NCBI GenBank assembly: GCA_021154885.1 | Contig: JAJKHS010000081.1 | Span: 1-64,000 of the forward strand | From: Thermoanaerobaculum sp. | Lineage (GTDB): Bacteria > Acidobacteriota > Thermoanaerobaculia > Multivoradales > UBA5704 | DNA: 64,000 bases | Reading direction: 5' to 3' | Shown here: positions 37,250 to 41,160 of the stretch, one piece after another | Position numbering within the stretch: position 1 is the first letter of the stretch | How the letters are laid out: each line of letters starts with the position of its first letter | Position numbers and translations under genes: made by a program | The notes under the pieces: model-generated | The model's input: only the letters and a program-made list of their open reading frames with translations | The model's database searches: none | What the model was told of the DNA's origin: nothing

Positions 37250-37597
37250 TCAGACCTGGAACTGCTTGAAGAAGTTGTCGCGCAGCTTGGCGTTGAATTC
37301 GTGGTCGGTCAGACGGTAGTAGATCGTCTGCGCGTCGCGGCGCGGAGCCACCAGCCCGTAAGCCTTGAGCTTGGCCAGGTGCTGGGACACGGCCGAAACC
37401 GACACCCCGAGCATCTCCGCCAGGTCGCACACGCACAGCTCCTTCATGTTCTCGAGCAGGTAGAGGAGCTTGAGCCGGGTGGAATTCCCGGCGAGGTTCA
37501 TCAGCTCCGCCGCCTCTTCGATGTCCGGCGTCCCCTCTAGGTTCTGCCGGATCTGGGCCATTTCCTTCGATGACATGTTCGGCGCCTCACCTTTCAT
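37250..37597 (-). CDS. ArsR/SmtB-type transcriptional repressor
   Basis: A 115-residue winged-helix protein. Start ATG 37597 has GGAGGTAAG just upstream. The metal-sensing motif MKELCVCDLAEML contains the alpha3 CxC pair found in arsenic, cadmium or lead sensors. The recognition helix is VSVSAVSQHLAKLK, and the wing is PRRDAQTIYYRL. It should repress its own or nearby genes until a thiophilic metal or metalloid binds. No transporter or arsenate reductase gene is adjacent, so the target is unclear. Confidence 0.9.
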   Translation of the reverse strand: MKGEAPNMSSKEMAQIRQNLEGTPDIEEAAELMNLAGNSTRLKLLYLLENMKELCVCDLAEMLGVSVSAVSQHLAKLKAYGLVAPRRDAQTIYYRLTDHEFNAKLRDNFFKQFQV

Positions 37598-37899
37598 TTT
37601 CTTACCTCCATGTTTCAAGCAATGCAAACCTTGTACCTTCTTGCACCCCCCGGCGGTGCACCCACCGGACGGACCACAAGCTCTTGAGACCTTCTTGGAC
37701 CTCAGTCGATCGGCTCACACTCTCACAGCGATGTTGAACAATCTCGATTATACTCAGGACCATACCCAAAATCTAGAGGTCGGGGAAACTTTCTGCGGGT
37801 TCTTGTCCCGCTTTGGCGCCCCCTCGCACCTTATGGGATTCAAACACTGGCATGTGCTCTTTCATTCCTCTCTCAATCAGTGGCCTGAAGGACGGGGCT
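37598..37899. other. Gene-free interval with a possible promoter for the ArsR-type gene
   Basis: About 300 bp, noticeably lower in GC than the surroundings, with no convincing gene. TATAAT on the minus strand at 37747-37752 could be a -10 box for the repressor gene, leaving a leader of about 140 bases. A short region around it (AATCTCGATT) is a partial palindrome. No clear -35 was found. Confidence 0.4.
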
Positions 37900-39000
37900 T
37901 TAGACCCGCATCTCCCTCCCCTTCCAGCTCGACAGCCGCCCCCGCCGCCGGTCGACAGTCCCCAAGGCGAGCACGGCGGCGAGGGCCAGGGCATCCAGCG
38001 GATAGAGGAACCCCCACGCCGGATGGTGACCGCCGCCGGAGCGCAGGAGCATCGAGGCCGCGGCGCCAGTGGCCCAGAGGAGGGTGGCCTCCACGGCCAG
38101 CCCGGCAAGGACGGTCGTCGCCAGGGCCGCGACCGGCAGGAGGAGGACCGCGAGGGCCGCCGCCACGATCCGGGGGCTCGGGCCCAGCAGGCCGCCCAGG
38201 TTGCGCCGCCAGCCTCGGAACGCCTCTCCCCAGCCTCTGTACATACGCACCCGCAGCCCTGCGGCTCGGAAAAAGCCGGTGCGAAAGCCGCCGGCGCGCA
38301 GGCGCGAGACCATGGCGATGTCGTCGATGACCTCGTTGTGCACCGCCTCGAAGCCGCCGCAGGCCTCCCACGCCTCCCGCCGCAGGAGGATGAACTGGCC
38401 GTTGGCCACCGGCGGGCCGGCGCCGGCGGCGGCCTCCTCCCAGTCGGCGAGCAGCGTGTCGAGCAGAGCGAAGATGGGAGGGACCAGCAGGTTCTCGCCA
38501 AGGCCCCGCACCTCCTGCACGCCGGCCAGGGAGACGGCGTCGAGGCCCCGCGCGGCCGCCGCGGCGTGGGCCCGGGCCAGGAGGTCGGGTGCATGGCGGG
38601 TGTCGGCGTCGGTGGTCAGCAGCCAGGGAGCAGTGCCCCCCTGCGACCCCGCCCAGAGGGCGTGCACCTTGCCTCGCCAGCCCGGCGGCAGGGGCCCGGC
38701 TGCGAGCAGGGCGAGGCGAGACTCGGAGACCGCCCGGGCCGCCACCAGCTCGCCCGAGCCGTCCGTCGAGCCGTCGTCGATCACCCGCACGCGCGGCGCC
38801 GCCGTCTGTCCGAGGAGCGTCTCCACACAGTCCGCTACGTTGTGCCGCTCGTCGCGGATGGGCAGCAGGACAATGGTTTCGGGGACGGGGAGGAGCGGAG
38901 CGGGAAGCACGGGAGCCTGCCGCCGCCGCTCCTCCGTCCGCAGCGCCAGCCCGAAGAAGCCGGCGCCGAGGAGGAGGGAGGCGGCGAGGGTGAGAGACAA
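37900..39000 (-). CDS. Family 2 glycosyltransferase, HpnB-like
   Basis: A 366-residue membrane glycosyltransferase. N-terminal hydrophobic segment, then the GT-A domain: ETIVLLPIRDERHNV, VIDDGSTDGSGE, LTTDADTRHAPDLL (DxD region) and GQFILLRREAWEACGGF. EVIDDIAMVSRLR is the ED-type acceptor site. C-terminal helices (about 280-345) anchor it. The pattern, including PPGWRGKVHALW, resembles hopanoid-associated HpnB. The start is a TTG 16 bases after the SelW-like stop; the two genes are co-directional. Lipid acceptor not proven. Confidence 0.8.
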   Translation of the reverse strand: MSLTLAASLLLGAGFFGLALRTEERRRQAPVLPAPLLPVPETIVLLPIRDERHNVADCVETLLGQTAAPRVRVIDDGSTDGSGELVAARAVSESRLALLAAGPLPPGWRGKVHALWAGSQGGTAPWLLTTDADTRHAPDLLARAHAAAAARGLDAVSLAGVQEVRGLGENLLVPPIFALLDTLLADWEEAAAGAGPPVANGQFILLRREAWEACGGFEAVHNEVIDDIAMVSRLRAGGFRTGFFRAAGLRVRMYRGWGEAFRGWRRNLGGLLGPSPRIVAAALAVLLLPVAALATTVLAGLAVEATLLWATGAAASMLLRSGGGHHPAWGFLYPLDALALAAVLALGTVDRRRGRLSSWKGREMRV

Positions 39001-39015
39001 TTTCGTCCGCAGCGG

Positions 39016-39258
39016 CTAGGCGCCGACCCGAGCCCCGAGCTCCCGCTCCACCTCGCCGGGCTGCGGGAAGCGTCCCAAACTCTTCTTGGAGAAGATCAGA
39101 TCGTTGCCGATGGTGACCTCGAAGACACCGCCACGGCCCTTGATCAACTGGGGCTTGATGCCGTACTGCTTTTCGATCTCAGCCGCCAGACTGGCGGCGC
39201 GGGGATAGTAGTTTCAGCTCGTACAGTACTCAATGGAGACCGAAATCTGGGGGGGCAT
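39016..39258 (-). CDS. SelW/Rdx-family selenoprotein with in-frame UGA
   Basis: An 80-residue product if UGA at 39214-39216 is read as selenocysteine. AGGAGG lies 7-12 bases before ATG 39258. The N-terminus ISVSIEYC-TS-U gives the CxxU redox motif (Cys12, Sec15) at the exact place of the CxxC/CxxU of the Rdx fold. NYYPRAASLAAEIEKQYG, then GGVFEVTIGNDLIFSKK and GRFPQPGEVE, match the family on both sides of the UGA. A SECIS-like hairpin sits 22 bases after the UGA. Rdx proteins are small thioredoxin-like oxidoreductases. The product lies 16 bases upstream of the glycosyltransferase. If Sec machinery is absent, this would be a pseudogene. Confidence 0.8.
39182..39198 (-). promoter_or_regulatory. 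Candidate bacterial SECIS hairpin
   Basis: On the minus strand, GCCGCCA pairs perfectly with TGGCGGC (7 bp) around a GUC loop. The loop begins 22 bases after the UGA and its first base is G. Published bacterial SECIS models ask for a stem of at least 4 bp, a G among the first two loop bases and a UGA-to-loop spacing of about 16-37 bases; all are met. Confidence 0.65.
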
Positions 39259-39280
39259 TCAGCTCCTCCTTTCGCCGCCT

Positions 39281-39286
39281 ATTATA
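39281..39286 (-). promoter_or_regulatory. Possible -10 box for the SelW-like gene
   Basis: A consensus TATAAT on the minus strand lies 22 bases before the start codon. A -35 match is weak, and the leader would be short (about 15 bases), just enough for the ribosome site. Confidence 0.4.
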
Positions 39287-39346
39287 ATGGCCATCTCGCC
39301 GGTCTGGCCAACGCCCCTCGGGCGAGCGCTGGCGCGTCCAGGCTCC

Positions 39347-39397
39347 GCGAAGCCGATGGCGGGCATCGCGAAGCCGATGGCGGGCATCGCGAAGCCC
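39347..39397 (+). repeat. 21-bp direct repeat, 2.4 copies
   Basis: The unit beginning GCGAAGCCGATGG is present twice in tandem (39347-39367 and 39368-39388) without mismatch, plus nine bases of a third. It lies between the SelW-like start and the PTPS-like end. Unlike the 21.9 kb array it is nearly identical between units, so recent. Confidence 0.8.
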
Positions 39398-39443
39398 GCG
39401 GCGCGCCGGCCGGGCCCACCGCTCAGCTCTGCCGTGCAGGCTC

Positions 39444-39926
39444 TCAGCGGAGCTCCGCCTCGTACCAGCACTGCTGACCAGCCGACTCCTCGACGGCGAC
39501 GGCGAGGGCCTCCACGGACGAGCCTGCGAGATGGGGTGCGAGGTCCAGCCAGAGCATGCGCGCCAGCAGCTCGATCGAGGTGTTGGGCAGCGGCAGCACC
39601 AGCGTATCCGCCGCCGGGAAGCGGTACGAGCGCTCGCCGCAGCTCACCTCGACGCACTCCCCCTGGCGCGACCACGAGAGACGGGAGCTCTCGCCCGGGA
39701 TCAGGGTGCGGCTGTCCAGCCGGGCGCAGAGGGCGCGCAGCTCGCGCTTGAAGCGTTCGATGTCCAGCAGCAGCCCCTCGGCGTCCAGGCTGGCGCCGGA
39801 GATCTCCACCCGCACCCGGTAGTTGTGGCCGTGGAGCAGCTCGGCGCCGCCATTGGCGAAGAGGGTGAAATGGGCGGAGGAGAACTTGAAGTCTTCCTTG
39901 GCGAGGACCATGCGGTAGCGGGGCAT
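39444..39926 (-). CDS. 6-pyruvoyl-tetrahydropterin synthase family protein (PTPS-III-like)
   Basis: A 160-residue T-fold enzyme. Zinc ligands are FSSAHF (His) and LLHGHNY (two His). The catalytic position before HGH, Cys in QueD and PTPS, is filled by Glu here: GGAELLHGHNY. That substitution is the mark of PTPS-III proteins, which replace FolB in folate synthesis by releasing 6-hydroxymethyl-dihydropterin. A 6-carboxytetrahydropterin role (QueD) is therefore less likely despite queA at 10191. C-terminal part has LLDIERFKREL and LPNTSIELLA, the usual dimer and substrate-binding helices. Confidence 0.85.
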   Translation of the reverse strand: MPRYRMVLAKEDFKFSSAHFTLFANGGAELLHGHNYRVRVEISGASLDAEGLLLDIERFKRELRALCARLDSRTLIPGESSRLSWSRQGECVEVSCGERSYRFPAADTLVLPLPNTSIELLARMLWLDLAPHLAGSSVEALAVAVEESAGQQCWYEAELR

Positions 39927-40078: not shown

Positions 40079-40303
40079 AGGTCTTCGTTCTTTGACAACT
40101 CAGACAAAGATCATGCCAGCCTCAATTCGCCATTTTGGCACACCGGTTGGAACTCGGACGCTAACCCGAAATTCTCCAAAGAGTTACCTGGTATTTCAAC
40201 CGGCAGAAACGAGGCGTCGCGGAGGAAAAACGTCGTCGTTCCGAGGAGGTTGGAAAAACAGGCACCTTAAGCCACGTAGATTCAAGAGGTTAGCAGGGGG
40301 TGT
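40079..40303 (+). other. CRISPR leader
   Basis: About 225 bp between the cas2 stump and the first repeat, richer in A/T than the rest of the window, with no gene. It starts near TTCTTTGACAACTC, a motif that recurs in leaders next to cas2 genes. The consistent repeat at this end and the degenerate repeat at the far end agree with a leader here. Confidence 0.65.
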
Positions 40304-41119
40304 CTCGGAATTGCCCTGAGCAGCACGGTGGGATTGCGACTCTCCTTTGGTAGAAAGTCGGATTCGGGGGGGGGGTTAGCTTCTCTCGGAATTGCCCTGA
40401 GCAGCACGGTGGGATTGCGACGGTCCAGTCCCATCCCCGCGTATCTTTCTATCCACAAGCGATCCTCGGAATTGCCCTGAGCAGCACGGTGGGATTGCGA
40501 CTTCTTAGACGCTGGCACCGCGGCTATGAGACTGACGAGAATCTCGGAATTGCCCTGAGCAGCACGGTGGGATTGCGACCTCTTCTTGATCTTCGCGTAC
40601 GCCCCGATCGCTCCAGCGATCCTCGGAATTGCCCTGAGCAGCACGGTGGGATTGCGACCATGTCCACGTGCTGAGTCTCCTTAAGGATGACTGTCGTTCG
40701 TCTCGGAATTGCCCTGAGCAGCACGGTGGGATTGCGACCGACCATAGCCCGCTTCAAAGTTACTTCGGCTTCTTTGCCTCGGAATTGCCCTGAGCAGCAC
40801 GGTGGGATTGCGACAGACGGAAAACGCTTTGTTGCAGCTTCGTTGGTCTCCTACTCGGAATTGCCCTGAGCAGCACGGTGGGATTGCGACAGCGACATGG
40901 CGTGGAGATCCCGCCTGCGTTTTTCTTCTAACTCGGAATTGCCCTGAGCAGCACGGTGGGATTGCGACTCAAACGGGCTGTGCAACGCCCTCACAAGAAC
41001 AGCGTGTCCGCCTCGGAATTGCCCTGAGCAGCACGGTGGGATTGCGACCAAACGGTGAGGTAGTTCAAGAACGGCACCGTGAAGGTCTTGGAATTGCCCT
41101 GAGCAGCACGGTGGATTGC
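40304..41119 (+). CRISPR. CRISPR array: 11 repeats, 10 spacers
   Basis: Ten identical 37-bp repeats start at 40304, 40385, 40465, 40543, 40622, 40702, 40778, 40854, 40932 and 41012. Each begins CTCGGAATTGCC and ends GGTGGGATTGCGAC. An eleventh at 41087 is degenerate (CTTGG start, a missing G, altered end), marking the leader-distal end. Spacers are 38-44 bp and all different; the first contains a run of ten G. The ATTGCGAC 3' end supports plus-strand transcription. No intact cas gene is in the window, only the cas2 stump. The subtype cannot be told; 37-bp repeats of this kind occur in type I and III systems. Confidence 0.98.
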
Positions 41120-41160
41120 CAATCGCTCAGCCCAGGCACGACGTTGCCGCCGGCATGTCT

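What the first reader, a model, noticed from the sequence alone, without database searches (positions are those of the whole stretch)
39016..39258. SelW-like gene with CxxU: a selenoprotein hidden by an in-frame UGA
Reading through TGA at 39214-39216 restores a complete Rdx-family protein: CTS-U at the redox site and conserved NYYPRAASLA and FEVTIGNDLIFSKK after it. A perfect 7-bp hairpin with G at the loop start lies 22 bases downstream, meeting the bacterial SECIS model. A standard gene caller would miss or split this gene.
Basis: partly seen in the sequence, partly recalled or inferred. Interest (0 to 1): 0.8.

Follow-up and report, generated by a model that had tools for sequence, protein, structure and literature searches.

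The report
Bacterial SelW-type selenoprotein gene
This is an intact small gene whose internal UGA codon almost certainly stands for the rare amino acid selenocysteine, making a bacterial selenoprotein W of a family described about twenty years ago: real and easily missed by gene finders, but ordinary.

Summary
On the minus strand, window 39258-39016 is one 80-codon frame with a TGA at 39216-39214. Read through, it is a complete Rdx/SelW-family protein with a CTSU motif. The same genome has tRNA-Sec (TCA), selA, selB and selD, and selD itself carries an in-frame TGA. Relatives have TGA at the same codon: 4 of 4 genomes of the family, and 87 of 97 loci read across Acidobacteriota and other phyla, with Cys in 9. 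The 7-bp hairpin alone is weak evidence: 1001 of 5000 synonymous recodings fold at least as well. The comparative evidence is strong: two synonymous third-base pairs are paired in 82 of 82 and 81 of 82 distinct sequences, with C-G/G-C swaps. The loop's third-base T occurs in 75 of 82, against 8% at other third positions. So this is a SECIS-decoded selenoprotein, not an error or pseudogene. The family is already published (PMC1088965, PMC1794560, PMC4607533). It is a new member of a known kind, of low novelty.

The parts
39016..39258 (-). selW-like selenoprotein ORF, 80 codons plus TAG stop, with an in-frame TGA read as selenocysteine
   Evidence: intact frame with TGA=U; Rdx PF10262 72.4 bits, NF041051 93.8 bits
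39214..39216 (-). TGA codon for Sec15 in the CTSU redox motif
   Evidence: TGA at the same codon in 87 of 97 loci read, Cys codon in 9, 1 unreadable
39182..39198 (-). SECIS hairpin GCCGCCA-GUC-UGGCGGC; loop starts 22 nt after the TGA
   Evidence: fold; third-base pairs conserved 82 of 82 and 81 of 82 with compensatory swaps; loop T in 75 of 82
39265..39270 (-). AGGAGG Shine-Dalgarno-like site, 6 nt before the ATG
   Evidence: read
39281..39310 (-). promoter-like TGGCCA-18-TATAAT
   Evidence: the only site found in 37800-39500, 0.1 expected; a consensus match only
37900..39000 (-). family-2/21-type glycosyltransferase gene 15 nt downstream, possibly co-transcribed
   Evidence: Pfam; found beside selW in L018/L052, L019, L020, L025 and L027

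Best explanation
The gene encodes a SelW-like (Rdx family) selenoprotein. Shown from sequence: an intact frame across one TGA, a complete Sec-decoding gene set in the genome, TGA conserved at that codon in relatives, and an RNA hairpin just downstream kept by compensatory synonymous changes. Inferred: SelB carrying Sec-tRNA(Sec) binds the hairpin and decodes the UGA as selenocysteine, giving an 80-residue thioredoxin-like protein with a Cys-x-x-Sec pair just before its first helix. That pair likely cycles between selenenylsulfide and reduced forms as a small thiol oxidoreductase. Its partner and physiological role are not known.
For: Own genome: tRNA-Sec 67.3 bits with TCA anticodon; selB 351 bits with its C-terminal part; selA 452 bits; selD 332 bits with its own in-frame TGA. 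TGA at the site in all 4 genomes of the family. In a 396-genome phylum sample the 79 best matches (own genome included) all contain one TGA. TGA in 87 of 97 loci read. Third-base pair 23-29 (counted from the T of TGA as 0) is paired in 82 of 82 distinct sequences (71 C-G, 11 G-C; shuffled mean 62.9, 0 of 5000 shuffles as high). Pair 20-32 is paired in 81 of 82 (shuffled mean 66.0, 0 of 5000). The loop T at a third position occurs in 75 of 82, against 105 of 1312 elsewhere. UGA-type SelW goes with selA: 97 of 106 genomes with it have selA above cut-off, against 153 of 290 others, Fisher p 5e-14. Predicted fold matches SelW-related structures 2fa8 and 2obk, TM 0.84-0.87, and mouse SelW 2npb, TM 0.70 (model pLDDT 80).
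Against: No protein-level proof. The hairpin's stability alone is unremarkable, and no Rfam SECIS model matched. Shuffle and Fisher tests ignore shared descent: on a tree the 23-29 state changes at least 5 times, and only 2 independent pairs lie on well-supported branches, too few for a sign test. Nine of 106 genomes with UGA-type SelW lack an above-cut-off selA, though 7 of those 9 have selB over the cut-off and 8 of 9 have tRNA-Sec over the cut-off.
Confidence: 0.96

Rival explanations
1. Sequencing or assembly error, or a pseudogene: the TGA is a mutated Cys codon.
For: The window is one contig of a 161-contig assembly; Cys-containing relatives exist (9 of 97 loci read).
Against: The same TGA appears independently in 87 of 97 loci, including all 4 genomes of the family; the rest of the frame is intact and conserved; the closest homologs are TGA, not Cys.
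Confidence: 0.02
2. TGA is a true stop, and a 14-codon leader is followed by a separate downstream ORF started at TTG (39147).
For: the ORF listing gives a 43-aa TTG ORF downstream.
Against: The conserved IEYC..U motif spans the TGA and aligns without gaps in relatives; the SECIS hairpin is conserved at synonymous sites; the full Sec machinery is present.
Confidence: 0.01
3. UGA is decoded as Trp or Cys by a changed genetic code, not as Sec.
For: The TGA lies within an open frame.
Against: The adjacent PTPS gene ends with TGA as its stop (39446-39444); a TCA-anticodon tRNA-Sec and the whole sel set are present; homologs have Cys there, not Trp; a conserved hairpin would not be needed.
Confidence: 0.01

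Closest known systems
Bacterial SelW-like selenoproteins (CxxU; Pfam Rdx PF10262, NCBIfam TIGR02174 and NF041051)
   Same: Same family by profile, same CxxU motif, UGA-encoded Sec and downstream hairpin as described in PMC1088965 and PMC1794560 (passages).
   Different: Only the host: a MAG-type Acidobacteriota lineage, with a glycosyltransferase gene next to it.
Epsilonproteobacterial SelW selenoproteins (PMC4607533)
   Same: UGA-encoded SelW with a 5/6-bp apical hairpin, missed in annotation (passages); the model NF041051, named SelTWH_Campy, scores above its cut-off here.
   Different: A different phylum.
Cys-type SelW-related proteins (Agrobacterium Atu0228, PDB 2fa8; Streptomyces SAV_2001, PDB 3dex)
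   Same: Same fold and family.
   Different: CxxC (CTQC) in place of CxxU; in this phylum they form a distinct CTQCRW type.
E. coli fdhF SECIS element
   Same: The apical sequence GGUCUG is the same as in many glycine-bearing relatives, and AGUCUG here differs by one base; both lie in the reading frame just after the UGA.
   Different: One codon nearer the UGA in E. coli; unrelated protein.

Membership tests
SelW-like / Rdx family (PF10262, TIGR02174) | Profile score over the curated cut-off | tested here: met
   72.4 bits (cut-off 22.6), 59.9 bits (34.2), NF041051 93.8 bits (88)
SelW-like / Rdx family (PF10262, TIGR02174) | CxxU or CxxC after the first strand | tested here: met
   CTSU at the end of strand 7-12, before helix 18-32
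SelW-like / Rdx family (PF10262, TIGR02174) | Thioredoxin-like SelW fold | tested here: met
   best matches are SelW-related structures, TM 0.81-0.87; a predicted model
Bacterial selenoprotein (Sec-decoded UGA) | In-frame UGA conserved in relatives | tested here: met
Bacterial selenoprotein (Sec-decoded UGA) | Hairpin with loop 16-37 nt after the UGA and G at the loop start | tested here: met
   loop 22 nt after the UGA, starts with G; spacing rule from PMC10778597 (passage)
Bacterial selenoprotein (Sec-decoded UGA) | tRNA-Sec, SelA, SelB and SelD in the genome | tested here: met
Bacterial selenoprotein (Sec-decoded UGA) | Selenium found in the protein | not testable with these tools
   needs 75Se labelling or mass spectrometry
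Thiol/selenol oxidoreductase activity | Redox activity with glutathione or thioredoxin | not testable with these tools
   inferred from the family; PMC1088965 calls the function unclear (passage)

The most novel reading that the evidence does not exclude
In this acidobacterial order, Sec-type SelW is functionally tied to the neighbouring glycosyltransferase (a conserved selW-GT unit), giving a testable physiological context for bacterial SelW, for example redox control of a cell-envelope glycan step.
Probability: 0.12. Interest if true: 0.45.

Novelty: new member of a known kind. Interest (0 to 1): 0.2.

Why it matters
It adds a well-supported member, in a little-known acidobacterial lineage, to a family that annotation pipelines tend to lose. 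It also shows that the element can be proven by covariation at synonymous third bases when a single hairpin cannot. It changes no concept.

Tried and rejected
Hairpin stability as proof: rejected, since it is not significant against synonymous recoding. Rfam SECIS models: no match to any SECIS family; the only hit at E up to 5 was a chance PVT1_4 match at 0.5, on the other strand. Other selenoproteins in the window: a scan gave 83 TGA-plus-hairpin candidates and printed only those with a GUC-type loop or a nearby Cys. Among those, by eye, only the selW frame looked like a real protein; none of the others was profile-searched. Plasmid similarity: no match. Tree-based independent-pairs tests for covariation were underpowered, with 2 pairs on supported branches.

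L057 and L113 were not caught by the motif. L057 was then read by hand as TGA and counted in the 87 of 97, but it is not in the pair counts. L113 has no readable site. Four identical sequences were removed (86 to 82). Of the 115 genomes matched, one place was read from each of 82 (own genome, 29 automatic loci, 52 chosen by me), mostly higher-scoring ones plus 8 of the 9 genomes whose only matches had no stop. Weak matches were mostly not read.

Full report
Observation. The minus strand of the window carries an 80-codon frame, 39258-39016, interrupted once by TGA at 39216-39214. It starts with ATG 6 nt after AGGAGG and has a TATAAT-type promoter-like site further up. Read with TGA as Sec it gives MPPQISVSIEYCTSUNYYPRAASLAAEIEKQYGIKPQLIKGRGGVFEVTIGNDLIFSKKSLGRFPQPGEVERELGARVGA. 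A standard ORF list shows only a 43-aa fragment. Profiles put it in Rdx/SelW: PF10262 72.4 bits, TIGR02174 59.9 bits, NF041051 93.8 bits, all above cut-off. Solved relatives by sequence include Atu0228 (2fa8) and mouse SelW (2npb, weak). A predicted model (16 sequences, mean pLDDT 80.4) matches 2fa8 and 2obk at TM 0.84-0.87 and mouse SelW at 0.70.

Machinery. The window's genome (8.2 Mb, 161 contigs, 96.6% complete) has a tRNA-Sec with TCA anticodon (67.3 bits, over the cut-off). It has selB (351 bits with its neighbouring piece), selA (452 bits) and selD (332 bits). selD itself has an in-frame TGA at what I recall to be the catalytic Cys position, followed by a hairpin. The genome search found one Rdx gene, this one. 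The neighbouring PTPS gene ends in TGA used as a stop, so TGA is not globally reassigned.

Who it is. A genome placed in the same genus has the homolog on a 7685-base contig. A contig of the same length in the public collection, QHVW01000346.1, is titled Acidobacteria bacterium isolate gp7 AA5, and the neighbouring genes match the window's at the same identities. The window is therefore inferred to be Acidobacteriota.

Relatives. All 4 genomes of the family, own included, have the gene with TGA at the site. In a phylum sample of 396 genomes, 115 matched; the 79 best matches, own included, each contain one TGA, and the first match without a stop ranks 80th. I read 97 loci in all: 87 TGA (86, L057), 9 Cys codons and 1 unreadable. 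Eight of the nine Cys forms are a distinct CTQCRW type like Atu0228; the ninth is a Caulobacteraceae CTSC form. selA above the cut-off is present in 97 of 106 genomes with a TGA-containing match and in 153 of the 290 others (not corrected for shared descent). Of the nine exceptions, 7 have selB and 8 have tRNA-Sec over the cut-off, so assembly gaps are the likely cause.

SECIS. The hairpin GCCGCCA-GUC-UGGCGGC has its loop 22 nt after the TGA, within the 16-37 nt range quoted in PMC10778597 (passage). Alone it proves nothing: 1001 of 5000 synonymous recodings with local codon usage fold at least as well, and 507 of 5000 have such a stem. Across 82 distinct TGA-bearing sequences the geometry pairs third codon positions with third codon positions. 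Pair 23-29 is intact in 82 of 82 (71 C-G and 11 G-C, always swapped together) and pair 20-32 in 81 of 82 (C-G, T-A, T-G, G-T, G-C), each beyond all 5000 shuffles. Pair 17-35 is also in excess (52 of 82, shuffled mean 35.7), pair 14-38 is not, and non-partner third-base pairs show no excess. The loop's third-base T occurs in 75 of 82, against 105 of 1312 at other third positions. In five neighbouring genes AGT is 1 of 86 Ser codons and GGT 6 of 167 Gly codons, yet AGT or GGT fills this codon in 72 of 82 relatives. Shared descent tempers the counts: at least 5 changes of the 23-29 state on the tree, and only 2 independent pairs on well-supported branches, both in agreement. The apical GGUCUG of E. 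coli fdhF equals that of many glycine-bearing relatives and differs by one base from AGUCUG here.

Context. selW lies 15 nt upstream of a glycosyltransferase gene. The pair is also found in L018/L052, L019, L020, L025 and L027 among the loci searched, whose short flanks may hide others. Compared with L018 and L020, the selW-GT unit is inverted between an ArsR-type regulator gene and PTPS.

Literature. SelW-like CxxU selenoproteins in bacteria are in PMC1088965 and PMC1794560; missed annotation and hairpins of SelW genes are in PMC4607533 (passages read). PMC1794560 lists 4 selenoproteins of 3 families in Acidobacteria; the passages seen do not name them. PMC12013277 lists an acidobacterium with 3 known selenoprotein genes (passage). 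Searches made.

Verdict. The redox role and its partners are inferred from the family. Novelty is low.

Noticed in passing
window 40291-41124: Repeat array of 11 copies at 75-81 nt spacing with a constant core (CTCGGAATTGCCCTGAGCAGCACGGTGGGATTGCGAC), CRISPR-like; cas genes not looked for.
   Followed up: partly
L014 1501-2433: The genome's own selD carries an in-frame TGA (GGUAAKIG) followed by a GGTCC-GGG-GGACC hairpin, so SelD is itself a likely selenoprotein.
   Followed up: partly
window 37250-39926 versus L018 and L020: The selW-glycosyltransferase unit is inverted between an ArsR-type regulator and PTPS relative to a same-genus and a same-family genome.
   Followed up: partly
G049 and G196: Two genomes rated 99-100% complete have UGA-type SelW, selB and tRNA-Sec but no selA match; an assembly gap or a very divergent selA.
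   Followed up: partly
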